Part shown: in pieces, positions 12,146 through 40,254 of the stretch
Position numbering within the stretch: position 1 is the first letter of the stretch
Layout: each line of letters starts with the position of its first letter
Origin: Brevibacterium rongguiense
GTDB taxonomy: Bacteria > Actinomycetota > Actinomycetes > Actinomycetales > Brevibacteriaceae
Assembly: GCF_009857845.1 (NCBI RefSeq)
Contig: NZ_WWEQ01000003.1
Coordinates: 1 to 64,000 of the forward strand
Direction of reading: 5' to 3'
Length of the DNA stretch: 64,000 nucleotides
Made by a program: the position numbers and the translations under genes
Notes under the pieces: generated by a model
Told to the model about the DNA's origin: nothing
Databases searched by the model: none
The model's input: the letters and a program-made list of their open reading frames with translations, nothing else

Positions 12146-13209
12146 GCGCGCAGGCACCGGCGGGCCAGAGGCTGCGGCGCGCGCCGCTGCCGCCTCTGGC
12201 CCGCTACATCCTCATCCGCCTGGGGATCAGCGCGCTGCTGATCTTCGGCGTCACCGTGGTGACGTTCCTGCTCACCAACCTCGTGCCCGCCGATCCTGCC
12301 CAGGCGATTCTGGGCGACCGGGCGGCTGGCAATCCGGAGATCGTCGAGCGGACCCGCCAGGAGCTCGGCCTCGACAAGCCCCTGATCGTCCAGTACTTCA
12401 CGTACCTCGGCAACCTGCTCCAGGGCGACCTCGGGGTCTCCAACCAGACCCGGCAGCCGGTAGCCCAGTCGATCGCCAACGTATTTCCGGCATCCATCGA
12501 GCTGGGCCTCGGCGCCATCCTCATCTCCGTGGTGCTCGGCCTCATCCTCGGGCTGGTGAGCGCGCTCAAGCGCAACACCGCCGTCGACCATGCGATCCGG
12601 GCGATCAGCCTGATCGGGATATCCGCCCCGACCTTCTGGATAGCAACGGTTGCCTACTTCGTGTTCTTCTTCAAGCTCCGCGCGGTCCCCGGCGCCGGCC
12701 GGTTGGATCCCTGGCTCCAACCGCCGCCCAAGGTCACGGGCCTCTACACGGTGGATGCGCTCGCAGCCGGCCAGTGGCCGGTCTTCGTCAACGCGCTCTC
12801 GCACCTGGTGCTGCCCTCGATTGTGCTCTCCCTCTTCACGATCGGGCTGCTCACCCGGTTCAGCCGCTCGAGCGTGCTCGACGTGGTGGGATTGGACTAC
12901 GTCACCGCCGCGCGGGCCAAGGGATTGCCGCCGCGGACGGTGATCTTCGGCTACATCTTCCGCGGTGCCCTGGTGCCGATCATCACCGTGGTCGGCCTCG
13001 CGTTCGGTTCGCTGCTCTCGGGAGCGGTGCTGACGGAAACGGTGTTCGCCTGGAACGGCCTGGGCCAGTACGCCTATCGCGGTGCCACCAAGCTCGACCT
13101 CCCGGTGATCATGGGCGTCGGATTGGTGATCGGAATCGTCTACATCGGCATCAACTTCCTCGTCGATCTCATCTACGGCTTCATCGACCCCCGGGTGAGG
13201 GTCCGATGA
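12142..13209 (+). CDS. ABC transporter permease, DppB/OppB type
   Basis: 355 residues with six predicted membrane helices. First helix after RYILIRLGISALLIF; DPAQAILG and QELGLDKPLIVQYFTYL are the DppB N-terminal periplasmic part. The EAA loop is DYVTAARAKGLP, where the ATPase docks, and AVLTETVFAWNGLGQYAY is the family end motif. ATG overlaps the stop of the binding protein (ATGA), so translation is coupled. Confidence 0.94.
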   Translation: MSAQAPAGQRLRRAPLPPLARYILIRLGISALLIFGVTVVTFLLTNLVPADPAQAILGDRAAGNPEIVERTRQELGLDKPLIVQYFTYLGNLLQGDLGVSNQTRQPVAQSIANVFPASIELGLGAILISVVLGLILGLVSALKRNTAVDHAIRAISLIGISAPTFWIATVAYFVFFFKLRAVPGAGRLDPWLQPPPKVTGLYTVDALAAGQWPVFVNALSHLVLPSIVLSLFTIGLLTRFSRSSVLDVVGLDYVTAARAKGLPPRTVIFGYIFRGALVPIITVVGLAFGSLLSGAVLTETVFAWNGLGQYAYRGATKLDLPVIMGVGLVIGIVYIGINFLVDLIYGFIDPRVRVR

Positions 13210-16520: not shown

Positions 16521-16685
16521 GGCCGGCCCCGGGGGCGGGGCACCGGAGCGCATTTGCATCGAGCACAAGCCGCGGCGTGCGCTGCGCAGCCGCGATCGGC
16601 GGCGCCGCGGGCCCGTGGACTGGACCGGCGGCGCTGCGGGCCGTGGACCGACGTTCCCGAAGCCCAGCATCCCGGTAACCCCCAC

Positions 16686-16798: not shown

Positions 16799-17716
16799 TC
16801 AGTGGCGCGGGGCGTAGCCCTCGCCGCCGTCCTCGCCGAACTCCGGGCCGTCGAGGGCATCGCGCTGGCGCACCCCGTCCGGGTTGTCGCCCTTCACGCC
16901 CTCCTTCGCATCGTGGAGGCGCTCGCGCAGCGGCTCGCGGTCACCGCGGCGGCCCATCGCCTCACCGCGCTCGGCGACGTGGCGCTCATCGCCGAACCCG
17001 CCGCGGGCATCGGCACCGCGCACGTCGTCCGGATTGTCGCCCTTGATGCCCTCCTTGGCGTCGTGGGCGCGCTCGCGGACCGGGCCGCGGCCGTCGTCGT
17101 GGCCGGCACGGTCGCGGTCATCGCGGAGGCCCTCGTTGCGCACGCCCTCGCCGCGGTCATCGCGCACAGCGTCGGGGTTGTTGCCCTTGATGCCCTCCTT
17201 GGCATCGTGGGCGCGCTCGCGCACGGACTCACCGCGGTGGGCATCGCGGTCGTCGCGGCGCACGTCGCGCTCGTCGTGGCGCTCCCCGCGACGGCTCTCG
17301 GCTGCCCCGGCAGCTCCAGCGGCGGCACCGCGGTCGTCGCGTCGGCGGCCCTTGTCATCGACATCGGGATCGAGCGCATCGGCCTTCACCTCGCGCTCCT
17401 TCACGGCGCGGCGCTCGGCCTCGATCCGCTCGTTCTCCTCCGCCAGCTCGCGCTCGCGACGATCGGCCTCGATGCGGGTGCGCTCCGTCTCGAGGCGCTG
17501 GTTCTCCAGCTCGAGTTCGTGCTTGCGCACGTCGAGCTCCTGCTCCTTGTTCTGCTCCCGCATCTCCGCTGCCTTCTTGCGGTTGGCCTCATCGATGCGG
17601 CGCTGCTCCTCGCGCTTGCGGGCGGCCGCCTTGCGGGCGGCGATGCTGATGATGGCGATGAGTGCGATGACGACAACGATGCCGACCACGATCCAGATGA
17701 TCGTCTGCATATCCAT
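16799..17716 (-). CDS. membrane-anchored hydrophilic coiled-coil protein with three hydrophilin-like repeats
   Basis: 305 residues, no family recognised. The ATG at 17716 is chosen because AGAGGAG sits 6 nt before it; an upstream in-frame ATG at 17758 lacks one. Residues about 5-27 are one membrane helix, probably N-out with a cytosolic tail. Residues 28-111 are a highly charged Lys/Arg/Glu helix, likely coiled coil. Residues 165-184, 213-232 and 263-282 are three copies of a repeat with core RERAHDAKEGIKGDNPDDVR, spaced 48-50 residues in a disordered Asp/Arg/Gly-rich tail. The repeats recall LEA/CsbD-type stress proteins, so a stress or envelope role is a guess. Confidence 0.75.
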   Translation of the reverse strand: MDMQTIIWIVVGIVVVIALIAIISIAARKAAARKREEQRRIDEANRKKAAEMREQNKEQELDVRKHELELENQRLETERTRIEADRRERELAEENERIEAERRAVKEREVKADALDPDVDDKGRRRDDRGAAAGAAGAAESRRGERHDERDVRRDDRDAHRGESVRERAHDAKEGIKGNNPDAVRDDRGEGVRNEGLRDDRDRAGHDDGRGPVRERAHDAKEGIKGDNPDDVRGADARGGFGDERHVAERGEAMGRRGDREPLRERLHDAKEGVKGDNPDGVRQRDALDGPEFGEDGGEGYAPRH

Positions 17717-17914
17717 TGCGGTACTCCTCTGTCTTCCTTGACGGTGAACGCGGGGCATGTATCCCTGTCAGAATATCCGATGCCCAGCCGGCGCGGCCGG
17801 CGGGGATGCGGGGTATTCGCAGGTGGCGCCGCCGCACCGGCACACCCAGCGGAAGAGGCAGCCTCGGACACGAGCCCAGCCCCAGGCGCCGCCGCGGGCT
17901 GCGGCTCCGGCCTG

Positions 17915-17932
17915 CGCCTACGCCTACGCCTA
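17915..17932. repeat. three CGCCTA units over the alcohol dehydrogenase stop
   Basis: CGCCTA occurs three times in tandem. On the minus strand it gives three TAG stops in the dehydrogenase frame, the first ending the gene at 17930. Confidence 0.7.
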
Positions 17933-18964
17933 CGGTCGGATGAGCGTCATACCCGGCCGCGTGCGCTCGCCCAGCTCCACCAGCGCCTCGGGCACCTCGT
18001 CGAGCCCGATGGTCCGCGTGACGAGGTCGGCGGGCCGCAGCGCTCCCGAGGCGACGAGGTCCACGAGCTCCGGATAGTCCGCGGCGGGCATGCCGTGGCT
18101 GCCGAAGACGGCGATCTCCTGGCCGATGACCCGGGGCATCGCGGTGACCGGCGGGTGGGCGAAGAGCCCGATCTGCACGTGGCGGCCCAGGGGAGCGGCG
18201 GCCAGGAGGGCCGCGTTCATCGTCTCCTCCCGGCCCAGCGCCTCCACGGTCACCGCGGGCCGGCGGCCCGCGGCCGCGACGATCGCGTCCGCGACCTCCT
18301 GCGGTGCGAGGCCGGCGGCGTTGACGGTGTCATCGGCGCCGAAGCGCCGGGCGAGGTCGAGCGCACCGTCGGCCACGTCGACCGCCACCGTGCGCGCCCC
18401 CAGTGCCCGGGCGATCATGATGGTCGAGAGCCCCACGCCGCCGCAGCCCACGACGGCGGCGGTCTCGCCTCGCTGGAGCCGGGCTCTGTGGTGCAGCCCG
18501 CGGAACGCGGTGGCGAACCGGCAGCCCAGCCCGACCACGGCCTCGGCGGGCAGGTCCTCCGGCACCGCGACGAGGTTGTGGTCCGCGGCGTGGATGACCA
18601 CCTGCTCGGCCCAGGAGCCGAAGTGGGTGAAACCGGGCTGCGTCTGATTCGGGCACACCTGCGCATTGCCGGAGCGGCACTGCTCACACCGCCCGCACCC
18701 GCACACGAACGGAGTGGTGACGCGCTGGCCGCGGCGCCACTCGCGCACGCCAGCGCCCACCTGCGCGATTCGGCCGACGAGCTCGTGGCCGGGCACATGG
18801 GGCAGGGCGACGGAATCGTCGTGGCCGGCCCAGGCGTGCCAATCGCTGCGGCACAGCCCCGTTGCCTCGACGTCGATGACGACGCCCCCGCTGGGGGCGG
18901 TCGGGGAGGGCAGGTCCGCCACGCGGGGGCGCTGGCCGAAGGACTCGAAGAAGACTGCGCGCAT
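17930..18964 (-). CDS. zinc-dependent alcohol dehydrogenase (MDR family)
   Basis: 344 residues from the ATG at 18964; a GTG three codons upstream overlaps the gap after the -10 and is less likely. Catalytic zinc ligands: Cys in GLCRSDWHAW and HE in PHVPGHE. Structural zinc Cys cluster: CGCGRCEQCRSGNAQVC. NAD(P) site: VVGCGGVGLSTI. Oxidises or reduces an alcohol/aldehyde in the cytosol; substrate not evident. Monocistronic, with LysG-type regulator gene upstream on the same strand but separated by about 60 bp and its own promoter. Confidence 0.92.
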   Translation of the reverse strand: MRAVFFESFGQRPRVADLPSPTAPSGGVVIDVEATGLCRSDWHAWAGHDDSVALPHVPGHELVGRIAQVGAGVREWRRGQRVTTPFVCGCGRCEQCRSGNAQVCPNQTQPGFTHFGSWAEQVVIHAADHNLVAVPEDLPAEAVVGLGCRFATAFRGLHHRARLQRGETAAVVGCGGVGLSTIMIARALGARTVAVDVADGALDLARRFGADDTVNAAGLAPQEVADAIVAAAGRRPAVTVEALGREETMNAALLAAAPLGRHVQIGLFAHPPVTAMPRVIGQEIAVFGSHGMPAADYPELVDLVASGALRPADLVTRTIGLDEVPEALVELGERTRPGMTLIRP

Positions 18965-30323: not shown

Positions 30324-32470
30324 GCGCTGCGCTCGCGCAGGCCCCTGCGCGCCTCGTGTTCGTGGGAGGCGGGCCCAAGACGACGGGCCTGCTGCTCGCC
30401 CTGGCCGCCCTGGGCCGGGCGGATCGCGGTGCGCTGCCCACCCGCCTGCGCATCGATGTCGTCGAGCCCTGCGAGCCGGGGGCGGGCAGGATCTGGCGCC
30501 GCGACCAGGACCCCAACCTGTGGATGAACTCGCTGGCCGAGGACGTGACGATCTTCGCCGACGACACGCTCGAGCCCGCGCCCGTCCCGGGCCCCAGCCT
30601 GCACGAGTGGGCCGGGGGCACGCTGTCCGCCGGGGAGTTCGCCCCGCGCCGCAGGCAGGGCGACTACCTCACCGCGGCGTTCGACGCTGCGGTGGCCGCG
30701 CTTCCGGACGGGCTGAGCGTGCGCGTCCACCGCGGCACGGCCGCGCAGGTCCGCAGGGCACCGGGCGGGCGGCAGGAGGTCACGGTCGAATCTGCCCACC
30801 CCGGTCAGGAGGGAGGCCAGGGCAGGCCGCTGCGCCTGAGCGCGGATGCCCTCGTGCTCGCCCAGGGCTTCGTGGAGGTCGAGCCCGACGCCGCCACGAC
30901 GGCACTCCAGCGCGCGGCGCGCGCCCGCGGCCTGACCTACGTGGCACCGGGTTACACCGCTGACGTGGACCTTCGCGTGCTGCCCGCGGGCGCCGATGTG
31001 CTGGTGCGCGGGATGGGCCTTGCCTTCATCGACGCGCTCATGATGCTCACCGCCGGGCGCGGTGGCACGTTCTCCCGGGGTGCGGACGGCCGCCTGTCCT
31101 ACGCCCCGAGCGGCCGCGAGCCCATCCTGTGGGCCGGTTCCCGGCGGGGCGTGCCCTACCGGCCCAAGCTCGGCTACCGGCCGGAGGGGATGCGCCTGGC
31201 ACCGCCGCGCTACATCGGCGCCCAGCTGCTCGAGGCGCTGCGCGGGGAGGACGGCTTCGTCAGCGTCGAGGGCTCCGCGCTGCCGCTGCTCGAGGCGGAG
31301 ATGGCCGCCGCGCACTACATCGAACTCGCCGGCCGCCACCCCGAGCGGGTGAGCGCGAGCGCCGACGACTTCACGGCGCTCATCGATCGGCAGGTTGCGG
31401 CGCTGGTCGCCGGCGATGCCGCCGCGCGGCGCGCCGCGCAGGAGGCACTGGACGCCCTGGTCGAGCGGGCGGTTGCCCAGCCGGCCGACCGATTCGACCT
31501 GGGCGCCCTCGATCGCCCGCTGGACGGTGTGCGCACCGATTCCGCCGCCGCCCTGGGGGAGGCCATCGCGGACCATATCGAGGCCGAGCTCGCGCGCGCG
31601 GCGGACCCGCACTTCTCACAGGACTCCGCGGTCTTCCACGCGCTCGTCTCCGGGTACTTCGCGCTGCGCGAGCACGTCAGCTCGGGGATCTTCACCCCCG
31701 AGGACCGCATCCGCAGCTTCGACGGTCGGCTGCACGGGCTCTTCTCCTTCCTGGCCTCGGGGCCGCCGCCCGAGCGGCTCGAGGCGCTGCTCGCGCTGGT
31801 GCGGGCGGGCATCGTCCGCTTCGTCGGGCCGGACATGAGCGTCGAGGTGGGCGACGGCGCATTCGTCGCCCGCTCCAGCGGCCACGGCGAGGCGCTGCGC
31901 GCGCCCGCCCTCCTCGAGGCCCGGCTGGCGCCCGTGAGCGCGGCGCGCGCGGCCGACCCGCTGCTGCGCGGCCTCCTCGCGGAGGGCTCCCTGCTCCTCG
32001 AGGCAGGCGCCGGGCACGCGGCGAAGTTCGTCACCGCCCCGAGCGGGCGCGCTATCGGGGGCGATGGCCGGCCGGTGCCCGACCTCTTCCTCGTGGGCCC
32101 GTCCGTGGCGGGGTCCGTGGGCGAGGCGTTCGCGCGGCCGGGCACGAACTCGCGCGTCTTCCGCGACAACGCCCGGCTGGCGAGGGAGATCGCCGGGCAG
32201 CTGGCTCAGCCCGGTGCGCGCACGGGCGACGCAGGGGGCGCCGGTACCGGTGACGCCGGGGCTGAAGCGGCCGGCGACGATGCGGCCGGTGGTGACGCCG
32301 AACAGGCCGGCACCGAACCACACGGCACCGAACCGCGCGATACCGAACACGCCTGCGCCGAACCGCGCGGCGCCGAAACGGGCCGGGCCGCGAGCGCGGC
32401 TGCACGCCCGGCCGGGCGCGCCCGGCGGCGGGTGCGGGCGCTCAGCCGGTCGGCGCCTCGGCCGCGGTGA
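30320..32470 (+). CDS. FAD/NAD(P)-binding protein (FAD_NAD_binding_9-like)
   Basis: 716 residues. The start is a TTG at 30320 overlapping the upstream stop (TTGA); it directly precedes the conserved LVFVGGGPKTTGLLLALAAL dinucleotide fold. Further marks: RIWRRDQDPNLWMNS, ALVLAQGF, VRGMGLAFIDALMMLT, and a C-terminal LFLVGPSVAGSVGEAFARPGTNSRVFRDNARLA. This family is poorly characterised; members occur with flavin monooxygenases and siderophore genes. The last 70 residues are low complexity with a degenerate GTEPHGTEPRDTE repeat and are not conserved-looking. The 3' end overlaps the convergent glutaminase gene by 29 nt. Confidence 0.85.
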   Translation: MSAALAQAPARLVFVGGGPKTTGLLLALAALGRADRGALPTRLRIDVVEPCEPGAGRIWRRDQDPNLWMNSLAEDVTIFADDTLEPAPVPGPSLHEWAGGTLSAGEFAPRRRQGDYLTAAFDAAVAALPDGLSVRVHRGTAAQVRRAPGGRQEVTVESAHPGQEGGQGRPLRLSADALVLAQGFVEVEPDAATTALQRAARARGLTYVAPGYTADVDLRVLPAGADVLVRGMGLAFIDALMMLTAGRGGTFSRGADGRLSYAPSGREPILWAGSRRGVPYRPKLGYRPEGMRLAPPRYIGAQLLEALRGEDGFVSVEGSALPLLEAEMAAAHYIELAGRHPERVSASADDFTALIDRQVAALVAGDAAARRAAQEALDALVERAVAQPADRFDLGALDRPLDGVRTDSAAALGEAIADHIEAELARAADPHFSQDSAVFHALVSGYFALREHVSSGIFTPEDRIRSFDGRLHGLFSFLASGPPPERLEALLALVRAGIVRFVGPDMSVEVGDGAFVARSSGHGEALRAPALLEARLAPVSAARAADPLLRGLLAEGSLLLEAGAGHAAKFVTAPSGRAIGGDGRPVPDLFLVGPSVAGSVGEAFARPGTNSRVFRDNARLAREIAGQLAQPGARTGDAGGAGTGDAGAEAAGDDAAGGDAEQAGTEPHGTEPRDTEHACAEPRGAETGRAASAAARPAGRARRRVRALSRSAPRPR

Positions 32471-33727
32471 GCGCGCCCCGCGGGCGGGAATCGAGTCGGC
32501 GCAGGCCGGTGACCTGATCCTCGCCGGCTGTCAGGCGCTGGTGGGGGTCGACGATGACGATCCCGTGGCCTTCGGCCGTGAGGCTGCGCATGCCCGTGAG
32601 CAGCATCTTCGCCCCCGCCTGGGCGATCGAGGGCACGAGCGTGAGGTCGATGATGACGTCGTCGCTGCCCGGCGGGATCTGGGCGAACCGGCGCAGGGCC
32701 ATCTCGGCCGTGGGGAAGTCGAGGACGCCCTGGAGGGCGACGAGCTTCGAGCCGTCGGCGTGCGGCAGTGCTGGCCGATCGCATTGATCGTGGGCGCGGG
32801 GATGGCCATCATGTGCATGCCCATGTCCTTGCTCATCTGCTCGAAGGCCTGGACACCGCGCACCGAGTTGCCGAACGCGTCGAGGCGCGGGGAGAACGTG
32901 CCGATGCCCACCTGTCCGGGCAACGCGCCCAGGATCCCTCCGGACACCCCGGACTTGGCGGGAATGCCCACGTGGGAGAGCCAGTCGCCGGCCGCGTCGT
33001 ACATGCCGCAGCTCGTCATGACGGCCATGACCTGCTGGGCGATCTCCGGGCTGACGACGCGCTCCTGGGTGAGCGGGTTCACCCCGCCGCGTGCCAGCGT
33101 CATGCCCATGACGGACAGGTCGTGGACCGTCACCCGCACCGCGCACTGGCGGGTGTAGCCCAGCACCACGTCGTCCGGGTCGTCCTCGATCTTGCCCGCG
33201 GCGCGCATGAGGGCGGCCAGCGCCAGGTTGCGCCAGGCGTCCTCGAGCTCGGAGGCGCAGGCGCCCTCGTCCACCGTGAGCTCGCGCCCGGCGAACTGGG
33301 AGAGGCCCTCGACGATGAGGGCGGAGCGCTGGGCCGCGGAGGCATCGGGCCCGCCGATGAGCGCGTGCGTGGTGAGCGCCCCGATGTTGATCATGGGGTT
33401 CTCCGGCCGGCCCGTGTGCTCGTCGAGGGAGATCTCGTTGAACGCATCGCCGGAGGGCTCCACGTCCACGGCGGCGTTGACGGCCTCGAAGCCGCGGTCG
33501 CGCAGCGCCAGCGCGTAGGCGAAGGGCTTCGAGATCGACTGGATGGTGAATTCGCGCAGCGCATCGCCGGCGGAGTACTGCGTGCCGTCGGGGGTGCACA
33601 GGGCGATCGCGAAGGGCTCCGGGTCGGCCTCTGCAAGCTCGCGGATGTAGTCCGCCCGCTCACCCGAGCGGTTGTCGAGGCAGCACTCGTAGATGTCGTC
33701 GAGGTAGGTGGTGACGGGGGTCTGCAT
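32442..33727 (-). pseudogene. glsA: glutaminase with C-terminal STAS domain, frameshifted
   Basis: Hydrolyses glutamine to glutamate. The ATG at 33727 has AGGAGG upstream. The glutaminase domain (to about 32775) is intact: TIQSISKPFAYALALRD with the Ser-x-x-Lys pair, GRPENPMINIGA, GYTRQCAVRVTVHDLSVMG and KSGVSGGILGALPG. After NAIGQ the frame is lost: the STAS domain (KLVALQGVLDF, FAQIPPGSDDVIIDLTLVPS, GIVIVDPHQRL) continues in another frame to a TGA at 32442. One missing base at about 32765-32775 explains it. Without the shift the protein would be about 428 residues, as in related glutaminase-STAS proteins. True mutation or sequence error cannot be told apart here. Confidence 0.85.
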
Positions 33728-33820: not shown

Positions 33821-34732
33821 TCAGGCGCGCGCCGGCTGGGGCGCGGCCGCCTGCACCCCGGCGGCGGCCAGGGCCGCGAGCAGGCGCCGGCGGATCTCCT
33901 GCGCCCGCACGCTCAGCGCCTCCTGGCGGCGCTTGTATTCCGCCTTGCCCGCGGCGGTCTCGATGCGCACGGGCTCGAGCCCCCAGTCGTGCAGATCGTA
34001 GGGGGAGGCCTCCATGTCGAGGCGGCGGATGTCGACGGCCAGGTCGAATGCGTCGAGCACCGTCTCCGAGGCGACGATCGGCTCGAGCTTCATCGCCCAC
34101 TTGTACAGGTCCATGCCGGCGTGGAGGCAGCCGGGCTGCTCGTTGGCGACCATCCCGGTGCGCGTGGGCTGCAGCGTGTTGAGCGGGCGGGCGGGCTCGG
34201 TGAAGAAGCGGAACGCATCGAAGTGGGAGCACTGCACGCGGTGGCCCTCGACCACCGCGTCCGTCTGCGCACGGCTCAGCCGCAGCGGCACCTGCCCGTG
34301 CCGGCGGTCGTCGTCGGACTGACGGTAGACCATGGCCCACTCGTGGAGCCCGAAGCAGCCGAACGTCGCCTCCCGGTGCAGGGTGGCGGTGAGCAGGCCC
34401 GCGATGAAGCGGGCGCCGTCGCCGCGCTGGGCGCGCCACTGCTCAAGGTCTACGGCCGCGGTCTGCTGCTCCTCGTCGAGTGCGTACCAGCGCCGGGCGA
34501 ATTCCGCGCGGTCCGGCCCGTCGCCGAGGCGCACGCGGACACCCGCTCCCGGGTGCCAACGTGCCAGCTTGCCGGGGGAGAAGGGGTAGTAGGTGAACAG
34601 GAAGTCCTCGACGGGGTGCGCCTCGCCGCGCTGACGGCGCGCGCGGTGTGCTGCGGTGCGCTGGTCGGCGCGCTGCGCGTGCCGGTCGCGGGCGGCGTGC
34701 CACGCGGCGGCGGGCAGCGGTGCAATGTCCAT
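33821..34732 (-). CDS. conserved actinobacterial protein, often named 3-methyladenine DNA glycosylase
   Basis: 303 residues. I recognise the pattern RARRQRGEAHPVEDFLFTYY, PGKLARWHPGAGV, TATLHREATFGCFGLHEWAMVYRQ, ETVLDAFDLAVDIRRLDMEASPYDL and GKAEYKRRQ as a conserved actinobacterial family that annotation pipelines call 3-methyladenine DNA glycosylase. It does not show the helix-hairpin-helix Gly/Pro-Asp motif of known glycosylases, so the name is not proven. CACACT lies 6 nt before the ATG. Upstream of glutaminase on the same strand, 93 bp apart. Confidence 0.7.
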   Translation of the reverse strand: MDIAPLPAAAWHAARDRHAQRADQRTAAHRARRQRGEAHPVEDFLFTYYPFSPGKLARWHPGAGVRVRLGDGPDRAEFARRWYALDEEQQTAAVDLEQWRAQRGDGARFIAGLLTATLHREATFGCFGLHEWAMVYRQSDDDRRHGQVPLRLSRAQTDAVVEGHRVQCSHFDAFRFFTEPARPLNTLQPTRTGMVANEQPGCLHAGMDLYKWAMKLEPIVASETVLDAFDLAVDIRRLDMEASPYDLHDWGLEPVRIETAAGKAEYKRRQEALSVRAQEIRRRLLAALAAAGVQAAAPQPARA

Positions 34733-34819: not shown

Positions 34820-34833
34820 GGTGCGATCGCACC
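34820..34833. promoter_or_regulatory. 14-bp perfect palindrome at the expected transcription start
   Basis: GGTGCGATCGCACC is self-complementary and lies 3 bp after the -10 hexamer, where a bound repressor would block the start of the surface-protein mRNA. Confidence 0.4.
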
Positions 34834-35181
34834 GGCATCAGGGCCTGTGCGCCGACATCGGAGTCACCATGTCCCTTCGCACCTCGTTCCGAGCCGCGGG
34901 CGCGGCGCTTGCCGCGCTGAGCCTGGCGGCCGTTTCCTCCGCGACGCTCGCGCCCGCCGCCGTCGCCGCCCCCGGTGACCCCGGCAGGACACGGGTGCGG
35001 AGACCTCCGTGGCCAAGGTCAAGGGCAAGGGAGTGGGCTCGGGCCGGTGGGGCATCGCCGGTGCCGTCGAGACGGTGGGCTCGGGTGGCAGCACGTACAA
35101 CTACGGGGTGCAGTTCGCGCCGGACGGGTCGCTGTGGGTGACGGACTCCGGGAAGGTCTACTGGTCAGGTGGCGGCTCGCA

Positions 35182-35188
35182 GGGGGGG
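35182..35188 (+). repeat. G7 homopolymer at a frameshift
   Basis: Seven G. Eight would join the upstream propeller frame (SGGGSQGG) to the downstream TPRVFRYAKTGS frame. Confidence 0.85.
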
Positions 35189-36246
35189 TACGCCGCGCGT
35201 CTTCCGGTACGCGAAGACCGGCAGCGACTTCGCGCAGGGGCAGTACACCGTCAACGGCTCCTGGGACCCGGGATGGAACGGGGGCCTGAGCGGCGGCAGC
35301 GCCAACGCCGGCATCGGAGCCAACTGGCAGGCGGTGGGGCAGCGCACAGTCATCAGCGAGCCGTACGCCGCGCCCAAGCCCAATCTGACGAACGGGCCGC
35401 GCCCCATTACGTTCGACAAGAGCGGCCGCGCGTGGATCGTGAATTCGGAGAACGGCGACCCCAATTCGGCCGACGAGTCGGCACCGCACCGCAAGGTCCA
35501 GGTGCTGCGCGCCGACGGCACGCCGGAGGCGACCTTGGGGTGGGGTGGGAAGTGGCCCGATCGCGACCATCCCGGCGTCACGTTCTACGGCACCGGCGCG
35601 GCGACGACCCCGGATGGCAAGATCCTCACGACCTCGGAGACGTCAAACCGCCTCAACGTCTTCGACCCCACCACGATGCAGGCCACGGGGCAGATCCCGC
35701 TCGACCTGCCCGCGGGCAGTGACAACTCCGATGACAAGGGCTACCGGTCGCCCTATGCGGTCGCGGTCGATCCCGTCGACGGCTCGATCTACACCGGGCT
35801 CGTCGATTTCCGCGACGCCCCTGGCATGAAGACCCAGGTGCCCTACGTCGAGAAGCGGGACGCGTCCGGCAAGCTCCTCGCCAAGCTCAAGAGTCCCTCG
35901 GGTGCCGCGCCCTTCCTGCGCACCGGTCAGGTCGTGTTCAATGTCGTGGTGAATCCGCACAACCGACACGTCTTCGCGTGGTCGCAGTTCAACAGCGGCG
36001 TCGTCGAGTGGGACGAGGACGGAAGCTTCGTGCGCTCCTGGAACGCGTCGAACAACACGGTGGGGGGCGTCGCCAAGGCGGCCGGGGTAGCCACGGAGGC
36101 GTTCCCGGGCATGGGCACCGTGCGCGGGCTCACGTTCGACGAAGGCGGACGAATGTACCTCACGATCAACGAGGGCGGCAGCTCGATGGGCAGGGACTCG
36201 AGCCCCGGGTCATGATTCTCGGGCAGACTCCTGCCCCGGTGAAGCA

Positions 36247-36253
36247 GGGGGGG
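36247..36253 (+). repeat. second G7 homopolymer at a frameshift
   Basis: Seven G. Eight would join the MILGQTPAPVKQ frame to the VDRTQAQLSWQAPP frame of the fibronectin-like part. Confidence 0.8.
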
Positions 36254-37762
36254 TGCGTGCCGAAGTGTGGATCGCACCCAGGCCCAGCTGTCGTGGCAGG
36301 CTCCACCGGCTCAGGCGCAGACCGAGGCCGGCAACGGCGGACTGCCGATCAAGGACTACGTCGTCGAACAGCACATGGAGGGGGACGTGGACGCCAGCGG
36401 TGCAGACCGCTGGACGGTCGTGCCGAAGAAAGAAGCCTCGACGAAGACACGCTGGACCGTCGAAGGGCTTGACCCTGCCAAGCACTACGATTTCCGGGTC
36501 TCCGCCTGGAATGAAGCGGGCAACGGCGATTGGCTGCGGCTCGAAAACCAGCGCACGATTCGCATGGCCGACGACTCCGCGGAGTTCGGGCTGGGCGCTC
36601 CGAGTGTCAAGGTCGACGTGCTCGACAACGACGTCCTGCTGAGCGACCCGTCGGCCGTGCCGCCGCTCGAGGAGGAGCCGGTCGATGCGGAAACGGCCAA
36701 GACGCTCAAGATCCTCGATCCCCGCGACGACGCTCCGAAGAAGTACACGGACAGCCTGACGGTCGATGGCGAGGGCACGTACACAGTGGAGCACGGCGCG
36801 ATTGTCTTCACTCCTGCGCGCGCCTTCGACACCGAGGGACCGCTGACGCCCATCACATATGCGTTGGGGCTCGAAGGCTGCCGCAGCCACGCGAAGCTCC
36901 GCCTCACCGCTCAGCCCAACAGCATCGCACTGGAGAAGTCCGGGAAACTCGCCGTCGGCGCTGCCGGTGCGGTCGGGGATCGGATCGACTGGTCGTTCAC
37001 CATGAAGAACACAGGCTTCTCGACGTTGCTGGGGGTATCGCTGGGTGATCAGCTGACGGGAATGTCGGATTTTGCCTACGAGTGGCCCGATCCGGCGAAA
37101 CCGGGTGAGCTGGCGCCAGGCGAGGAGGCGACGGCCACCGCGCACTCTGCCGTCACGGCCGAGCAGCGATCCGCCGGATTCGTCGTGAATTCCGCGGTCG
37201 TCACCGGAGTGGCAGGAGACCGCGAGGTGAAGGCGGAGGCGACAGCGCGGGTCGAGCTGCCGGACCCTCCGGAGCCGACGGCGTCCCCGACCACCGAGCC
37301 GACGGCGCCGACGACGCCGCCAACGCCGACGATTGATCCCACGCCGCCGACCACCGAACCGACGAAGCCAAGCACGCCGCCAACGGTCGACCCGACCGCG
37401 GATCCGACTTCCGAGCCGACGGTTGATCCCACGCCGGGCCCGACAACGGCACCGACGGGAACCCCGACGACGGGCCCCGCCCCCACCTCCGGTCCGACGA
37501 GCGGAGTTCCGTCTCCCTCGGCATCATCCGCCCCGAGCACGTCACGCCCGACTACTCAGCCGCCGGCCCCGGCCAGCAGTTCGCCGGGCGATCCCGGCAA
37601 CCCGCCGGCGCCCGGGCCGAACGGACCGCCCGATGACCGCAGTCCGCTGCCGCGCACCGGTGTCCAGGGCATCGCCTCGGCACTCGTTGCCGCGGGATGC
37701 CTGATCGTGGGTGGCGTGCTTACCGCGGTGCGCGCCCGCCGGCGCCGCTGAGCGTGGCAGGT

Positions 37763-37877: not shown

Positions 37878-40254
37878 ATGAAAGCGACCCCCTTCATGCG
37901 CATCCCCCAGAAGAAGCTCGCGGCCGCCGGTGCTGGCGCAGCGGCCTCCGCCCTCGTCCTCGGCTTCGCCGCTGTCCCACTGCTCGTTCCCCGGCACAGG
38001 CCGATGACGCAAGCGAATTGCCCGTTCCGGAAATCGTGAAGCAGACGACGATCGGGAAAACCGACTCCAAGGGCATCGGGTCCGGCAAGTGGGGTTACGT
38101 GGGCGACGTCAAGACGCAGAACCCCGATGGCAAGACGACCTACCCGTACGGCGTGAACATCAACCCGAGTGACGGATCGCTGTGGGTGTCGGATTCCGGC
38201 AAAACGGTGACCAGCAGGTTTAGCTGCGCGTTGGCTGGCTTCCCGGGTACGAGCCGCTGTCAGACGGGTGTACCGCAGATGGTGACCTACGCGAAGGCCG
38301 ATGGCACCGAACAGCGCGCCAGCCAGTACACCGTGGACGGTGATTTCGCCGTCACGGCGAAGACAGCGATCTCCGATGACTGGAAGACCAAGAACACCGG
38401 TTTGGGCGCCCTCTTCGCCGCCCGCACCGAGGCTAGGACGAAGAAGCGCGTCGACACGGAGACCGACAAGTCCGAGTACCACGGCGATTCGTTCCATGGG
38501 CCGCGCGGCATCGCGTTCGACGGAGAGGGCAACGGCTGGGTGACGGACTCCGATGACCTCGCGAGCCCGCAGAACCCGGTCGCCGTCAAGATCTTCGACA
38601 AGGACCTCGATTTCAAGAAGGCGCTCGGCGGCAACAACTACGGCCAGTTCGATGCGCTCGACAATGCGAACTCCGCCCAGCCCATGTCGATCGCGACGCG
38701 TCCCAATGAAAACATGCTCGTCGCCAGCCAGAGCGGCAAGGGCAAGAACCGGCTCATCGAGTACAAGCCGGACGGCACGTTCGTCGGCACGATTCCCCTC
38801 GACCTCCCCGAGGGCTCGCCGGGACTGGTCAGCGACAAGGACACCGGTGCGCGGACCCCCGAGGCGTTTCCGTGAACCCGAAGACCGGACATATCTTCGT
38901 CGCGCCCATGGACGGCTCGACGCAGTCGTGGGTGGGGCAGGGCGGCAACTCCATTGCGCCCTTCATCGTCGAGTACGACGAAAAGGGCGCGTTTGTGCAG
39001 AACATCGGCCAGGGTGATTACGGCACGCGCCAGGCCATGTTCGGCTCCCGCATCGATCCGAAGACGCAGGAGGTCTGGGCATGGTCCGCCGACGGCGGCT
39101 TCAACGAGTACAAGGCGGATGGCACGCTCGTCAAGAAGTTCACCGATAAGGACTTCTACGGTCTGGAGCACATCCGCGGCCTGGTCTTCGACTCCAACGG
39201 CCGTGTGCTTGCCACGACGAAGGAGGGCAGCAATTCGAAGACGGCGCTCAATCGCGTCATGATGCTCGGTCAGACTCCGAATCCGACGACGGAGGTCTCT
39301 GGCACCCTCGTGCCGTCCGAAACCCCAGCGGAGACCGCCCCGGCGAGTGCTGTCGCCAAGGCGGCCCGCGCGGACGCCGACGACCCGACGTGCGGCGTCA
39401 CCTCTCCGGCACCCGCAGCGCCCACCTACGAGACCGCGGACCTTGATTGGGCGAACGCCTCGGTGAGCGGCGCGCTGCCCTATCACCAGACCGAAGTGCG
39501 CGACTTCTCGATCGAGGCCCGCATGCTCGACGCCGATGATCAGCCCACCAGCGACTGGAAGCTCGTCGACCACAGTTCCGCGACGTCGGAGCTTGGGCGC
39601 GACGGGGTCAAGCTGCCGGAGCCGCTGAAGGCGGGCAGCGAGGACAAGGTGCAGTTCCGCGTCGCGGCGTGGAACGAGGCCGGCAACGGGGACACCGGAG
39701 GGATCACCCTCCAGGCGCCCCCTGCCCCTACTGCCCCAGCACCCACACCGTGCGAGACGCCCAGCGACGCGCCCTCTCCTTCGGATTCGGCCTCGCCGTC
39801 TCCCTCCGACTCGGTCTCCCCGTCCCCGTCGGAGTCGGTCTCCCCGTCTCCCTCAGATTCGACGACTCCGTCTCCATCGGCTTCGGTGACTCCCTCCCCG
39901 TCGGACTCGGTCACACCGTCCCCCTCGGACTCGCAGACCCCGGAGCAGACGGACACGACCACCCCCTCGGAGACGAGTAGCGCTTCGGCCACCCCGAGCG
40001 CTTCGAGCACCCCGACGAAGCAGCCCAGCCGGAAGCCGAGCCCCGCGCCGTCGACCTCGTCGGCTCCGGCGCCGGGCCCCAACCCCGGAGAGAACCCCGG
40101 GGACGGCCCCACGCAGCCGGGCAGCCCCGACCAGCCGAACAGCCCCCTGCCGCGCACCGGTGCGGAGATCGCAGGCGCGCTGGCGGCGGCCGCGCTGCTC
40201 ATCGGCGGCGGCGTCCTGGCCGTGACCGCCGGCCGCAGGCGCAGCCGGAAGTGA
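37878..40254 (+). pseudogene. LPXTG surface protein 2, paralogue, with two inferred frameshifts
   Basis: Start ATG at 37878 (or 37896; no ribosome site seen). The signal peptide KKLAAAGAGAAASALVLGF runs to a C4 at 37989-37992 where the frame is lost; one more base restores an AQADDASELPVPE cleavage region. The propeller part (IGSGKWGYVGDV, YPYGVNINPSDGSLWVSDSG, HGPRGIAFDGEGNGWVTDS, SVNPKTGHIFVAP) is cut again near 38866, where GCG-GTT has lost a G. Then a fibronectin-like part (FRVAAWNEAGNGD), a Ser/Pro/Asp repeat stalk (39769-39936), LPRTG at 40147-40161, helix and basic tail. Same plan as protein 1 without the CshA-type and DUF11-like parts. About 790 residues if repaired. Confidence 0.85.
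39769..39936 (+). repeat. seven 24-bp tandem repeats encoding SPSPSDSV-type units
   Basis: Units start every 24 bp from 39769 and encode eight residues of the form (S/T/A)PSPS(D/E/A)S(V/A/T/Q). They form the stalk that spans the cell wall before the LPRTG signal. Length may vary between strains by slippage or recombination. Confidence 0.9.

What the first reader, a model, noticed from the sequence alone, without database searches (positions are those of the whole stretch)
34869..37751. Surface-protein gene broken by four single-base losses, two of them in G7 tracts
The LPRTG protein is complete in content from signal peptide to sorting signal but is spread over five reading-frame segments. 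Each junction is repaired by adding one base: near 34983, in G7 (35182-35188), in C4 (36203-36206) and in G7 (36247-36253). Homopolymer G tracts in surface-protein genes are classic phase-variation sites, so G7/G8 switching could turn the protein on and off. The alternatives are homopolymer under-calling in the sequencing, or decay. The fact that all four errors have the same sign, including at short runs, leans toward sequence error for at least some.
Basis: partly seen in the sequence, partly recalled or inferred. Interest (0 to 1): 0.75.

Follow-up and report, generated by a model that had tools for sequence, protein, structure and literature searches.

The report
Frame-broken surface protein gene, not switch
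A cell-surface protein gene in a high-GC actinobacterium is split by four one-base frame changes, but so are its neighbours, so this is most likely a patch of poor sequence or recent gene loss and not an on/off switch; it is ordinary.

Summary
The gene at 34869-37751 is broken at the four places named, and both G7 tracts are real. The claim that all four junctions are one-base losses is wrong. The frame goes 0, -1, 0, -1, 0: the two G7 junctions shift the opposite way to the other two. An intact 1056-aa homolog in Gulosibacter macacae aligns across 34875-37268 in one frame, except for a displaced stretch (34985-35176) that aligns in the -1 frame; 36209-36247 matches the homolog in that frame too.

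The break is not confined to this gene. Its tandem paralog (37878-40254) has two frame changes, and a glutaminase on the other strand has one: seven in 6.1 kb, against three others confirmed in about 680 kb of this genome.

Phase variation is not supported. Four independent breaks cannot be switched by G7 slippage alone, the tracts are absent from intact homologs, and neighbouring genes without such tracts are broken too. Conserved residues are kept and no nonsense codon occurs within the segments, so any loss is recent. I favour a local patch of indel-prone sequence (0.5) over recent pseudogenisation (0.38). Raw reads would decide.

The parts
34869..34982 (+). Segment 1 (frame 0): start and signal-peptide-like N-terminus
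   Evidence: ORF 34821-35141; the Gulosibacter alignment begins at 34875
34985..35182 (+). Segment 2 (frame displaced -1): first NHL-like repeats
   Evidence: 56% identity to Gulosibacter residues 38-103 in this frame; downstream frame open only from 34979
35182..35188 (+). G7 tract at junction 2 (shift of opposite sign to junctions 1 and 3)
   Evidence: frame change detected by the codon model
35189..36203 (+). Segment 3 (frame 0): main NHL-type beta-propeller part
   Evidence: ORF 35169-36215; 41-43% identity to Gulosibacter; low-confidence model resembles NHL propellers
36203..36206 (+). C4 run at or near junction 3 (-1)
   Evidence: upstream frame stops at 36213; the MILGQTPAPV segment matches the homolog's VILGQTPVPV in the displaced frame
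36207..36247 (+). Segment 4 (frame displaced -1), about 13 codons
36247..36253 (+). G7 tract at junction 4 (opposite sign)
   Evidence: downstream frame open only from 36243
36254..37751 (+). Segment 5 (frame 0): Fn3, CshA-like, DUF7507, Pro/Thr-rich stalk, LPRTG (37647-37661), hydrophobic stretch, basic tail
   Evidence: Pfam DUF7507 4e-20, fn3 1.7e-6; sequence
37878..40254 (+). Tandem paralog (NHL-like part, Ser/Pro stalk, LPRTG at 40147-40161), also frame-broken near 37989-37992 (C4) and 38856-38860 (C5), both -1
   Evidence: ORF pieces, similarity to segment 3, Gulosibacter match in two frames, sequence
32442..33727 (-). Glutaminase with C-terminal extension, frame-broken (-1) near 32767; catalytic domain in one frame
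   Evidence: NF002134 positions 1-323 in one frame, 327-404 in another; contiguous in one frame in congener G003
33821..34732 (-). Unbroken gene between the broken ones
   Evidence: single 303-aa ORF with strong coding signal

Best explanation
One sortase-anchored surface protein gene (signal peptide, NHL-type beta-propeller, Fn3, DUF7507 domain, stalk, LPRTG) reads in five frame segments because of four +/-1 indels. They belong to a 6.1-kb patch (about 32.77-38.86 kb) with seven such indels in three genes on both strands. Shown: the seven frame changes, their signs, the intact homologs and the clustering. Inferred: the patch is most likely a local defect of the assembled sequence (miscounted short G/C runs), so that some or all of the frame changes are not in the cell's DNA and the surface protein is probably made normally.
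For: Seven changes in 6.1 kb across unrelated genes on both strands. A second, smaller patch in the same genome likewise hits two unrelated neighbours, an FG-GAP/LPXTG gene and a UvrA-like gene. Of ten confirmed breaks eight are -1; the two +1 are both at G7. Six of the seven junctions in the patch lie at a run of 4 or more G/C, against about 0.2 per interval by chance (intervals were set by hand). No nonsense codon inside any segment over 1734 codons. Segment 3 keeps 67-85% of columns conserved in intact homologs, as intact homologs do themselves (57-80%).
Against: The assembly is otherwise clean: 9 flagged frame changes in 584 kb coding, below the rate in the congener control, with only one clear break (the aldehyde dehydrogenase) in 155 kb of conserved sequence. 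There is no independent reason for a bad patch in mid-contig. The sequencing platform is unknown. Six of the seven changes fall in two dispensable paralogs, as gene loss would also give. Frame-change clusters also occur in a congener.
Confidence: 0.5

Rival explanations
1. Recent pseudogenisation: the tandem pair of surface genes, an accessory trait found in only 1 of 57 sampled genomes of the genus, has lost selection and collects +/-1 slippage indels at short G/C runs; the glutaminase break is a tolerated truncation.
For: Six of the seven breaks are in two paralogs; the family was found in no other of 57 genomes of the genus; the clean assembly background argues that indels are real; the glutaminase catalytic domain is unbroken.
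Against: All indels are +/-1 with no longer indel and no nonsense codon (only 2.8% of substitutions would give one, so weak); conserved columns are retained; an enzyme gene on the other strand is hit within 2.2 kb, and the same happens at a second place.
Confidence: 0.38
2. Phase variation: slippage in the G7 tracts switches the surface protein on and off.
For: G/C runs of 7 or more are rare in this genome (8 in 679 kb) and two lie exactly at junctions. Surface-protein genes of the actinobacterium Cutibacterium (Propionibacterium) acnes do carry variable G/C tracts (PMC4746626).
Against: Two further breaks lie outside the tracts, so changing tract length cannot restore the gene; the paralog has no G7 yet is broken; the tracts are absent from the coding sequence of four intact homologs.
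Confidence: 0.07
3. Programmed frameshifting or another recoding gives one protein from the five segments.
For: None beyond the frames themselves.
Against: Four shifts of alternating sign in one gene; four homologs use one plain frame; junctions not conserved.
Confidence: 0.02

Closest known systems
   Same: N-terminal NHL-like part followed by an LPXTG-type end; Fn3 and DUF7507 also shown for Gulosibacter; about 40% identity to the best match over the NHL part
   Different: One uninterrupted frame; no G/C run of 7 or more in the coding sequence
G/C-tract variable surface genes of Cutibacterium (Propionibacterium) acnes (dermatan-sulphate adhesins; PMC4746626)
   Same: Actinobacterial surface-protein gene with G tracts longer than six
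   Different: There a tract by itself shifts the frame or expression and varies by clade; here four breaks, two outside tracts, and broken neighbours
Singleton frameshift genes (GeneTack classes; PMC3711429)
   Same: Isolated frame changes confirmed by a protein match, which that study expects to be sequencing errors or recent indels
   Different: Several in one gene and in neighbours

Membership tests
Slipped-strand phase-variable (contingency) gene | Length of one repeat tract alone sets the reading frame | tested here: not met
   Four frame changes, two outside G7
Slipped-strand phase-variable (contingency) gene | Tract kept in homologous genes | tested here: not met
   No G/C run of 7 or more in the coding sequence of four intact homologs, which are only about 40% identical
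Slipped-strand phase-variable (contingency) gene | Tract length varies between cells or strains | not testable with these tools
   No reads and no second genome of the species
Sortase-anchored (LPXTG) surface protein | Signal peptide and LPXTG, hydrophobic stretch, basic tail | tested here: met
   Read from sequence; Pfam Gram_pos_anchor only 13.1 bits against a cut-off of 20
Sortase-anchored (LPXTG) surface protein | Sortase in the genome | tested here: met
   Two sortases above cut-off
NHL-type beta-propeller protein | NHL repeats or propeller fold | tested here: inconclusive
   NHL hit below cut-off; model pLDDT 52 yet top fold matches are NHL propellers
Pseudogene | Intact homologs exist and this copy is disrupted | tested here: met
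Pseudogene | Relaxed constraint | tested here: inconclusive
   Conserved columns retained as in intact homologs; excludes old decay only
Sequence or assembly error | Frame changes absent from accurate reads | not testable with these tools
   No reads held

The most novel reading that the evidence does not exclude
The G7 tracts are truly variable in the population and, with further slippage at the shorter C runs, make a multi-site hypervariable surface-protein pair.
Probability: 0.05. Interest if true: 0.55.

Novelty: already known. Interest (0 to 1): 0.17.

Why it matters
It removes a false phase-variation candidate and flags a 6-kb stretch of a draft genome whose gene calls (two surface proteins, one glutaminase) should not be trusted until checked. 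If the breaks are real, it is a recent loss of a tandem pair of surface proteins.

Tried and rejected
Whole-genome error rate: the hypothesis of a uniformly indel-ridden assembly was rejected. Orthologs in the genus: none found. A class-wide search with segment 3 alone found only the gene itself. Finding the organism and sequencing platform in papers failed. Two genus searches for the glutaminase failed in the machine; a congener copy was found in fetched stretches. The frame change flagged at L027 6724 was dismissed as two ordinary genes, a DtxR-type regulator and a DUF6157 protein. The structure model was poor.

Full report
What is there. The window is bases 1-64000 of contig C113 of a 3.12-Mb, 179-contig high-GC actinobacterial genome. 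Between 34869 and 37751 five consecutive open stretches make up one surface protein: a signal-peptide-like N-terminus, an NHL-like part, an Fn3 domain, a CshA-like stretch, DUF7507, a Pro/Thr-rich stalk and an LPRTG sorting signal. A single-ORF homolog of 1056 aa in Gulosibacter macacae (L010) shows that they belong together. Three further homologs, in genomes G285, G269 and G090, are also uninterrupted. One more (G180) has a single frame change of its own.

The sign of the breaks. By start coordinate modulo 3 the segments lie in frames 0, 2, 0, 2, 0. The changes near 34980 and 36203 are therefore -1, and the two in the G7 tracts are +1 (modulo 3). An independent search with the Gulosibacter protein agrees: one alignment covers 34875-37268 in one frame, reading through three TGA, and a second covers 34985-35176 in another frame at 56% identity.

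How unusual the tracts are. In 679 kb of this genome there are eight G/C runs of 7 or 8; the window has two, both at these junctions. The other six are not at frame changes that the codon model detected.

The neighbours. The next gene downstream (37878-40254) is a diverged paralog with its own LPRTG. It too is in three frame segments, with changes near 37990 and 38858, both -1. The second change happens to create a GTGA overlap that would look like two coupled genes. Upstream on the other strand the glutaminase gene changes frame near 32767 (-1): one curated profile matches at positions 1-323 in one frame and 327-404 in another, and a congener has both parts in one frame. The gene between (33821-34732) is unbroken. 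That makes seven frame changes in 6.1 kb.

The background. A codon-model scan flags 9 frame changes in 584 kb of coding sequence of this genome and 31 in 1.30 Mb from congeners, so the assembly as a whole is not indel-ridden. Confirmed cases elsewhere in the sample are an FG-GAP/LPXTG surface gene and a neighbouring UvrA-like gene on C97, and an aldehyde dehydrogenase on C95, each -1. Part of the sample was chosen because it held LPXTG genes, which may bias it. A laxer scan still places the densest cluster of this genome in the window, but a congener has clusters of similar density.

Mechanism. Phase variation by G7 slippage would need the tract alone to set the frame; two breaks lie outside the tracts and neighbours without tracts are broken too. 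Old decay is unlikely: columns conserved in intact homologs are kept at 67-85% in the long middle segment, against 57-80% in the intact homologs themselves, and no nonsense codon occurs in 1734 codons (only 2.8% of substitutions would create one, so this is weak). This leaves a patch of wrong sequence or a recent loss. The patch crosses unrelated genes on both strands and a second smaller patch does the same, which favours wrong sequence. The clean background and the concentration in two paralogs favour loss. I put these at 0.5 and 0.38.

The protein itself. When whole it is probably a wall-anchored protein: the genome has two sortases. The best fold matches of a poor model are NHL beta-propellers. 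A binding or adhesion role is inference from the domains. The family was found in no other genome of the 57 sampled in the genus and in 4 of 395 other genomes of the order.

Comparison with the known. Variable G/C tracts in actinobacterial surface genes are documented in Cutibacterium acnes, where sequencing error was named as a major concern and lengths were checked by Sanger sequencing (PMC4746626). A survey of frame transitions in prokaryotic genomes expects unclustered, protein-supported frame changes to be mostly sequencing errors, with recent indels as the alternative (PMC3711429). This case fits that ordinary class.

Noticed in passing
window 32442-33727 (-): Glutaminase with a C-terminal extension is frame-broken near 32767; its catalytic domain is unbroken.
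   Followed up: yes
L022 14807-17154 (-), contig C97: FG-GAP repeat LPXTG surface gene with a frame change near 16563, next to a short CTCAT repeat.
   Followed up: partly
L022 10971-13999 (-), contig C97: UvrA-like gene with a frame change near 12759, adjacent to the broken FG-GAP surface gene.
   Followed up: partly
L117 about 16800-18450 (-), contig C95: Aldehyde dehydrogenase gene split by a frame change near 17203, at a G5 run.
   Followed up: partly
L160 4901-4908: A run of eight G lies about 240 bases upstream of the open frame of the intact homolog in G090; a possible promoter tract.
   Followed up: no
L157/L159 (G180 C2 about 427740): Homolog in another genus with a single frame change near a C4 run.
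   Followed up: partly
L083 and L085 (congener G003): Clusters of four to five flagged frame changes within 6 kb in a single-contig genome.
   Followed up: no
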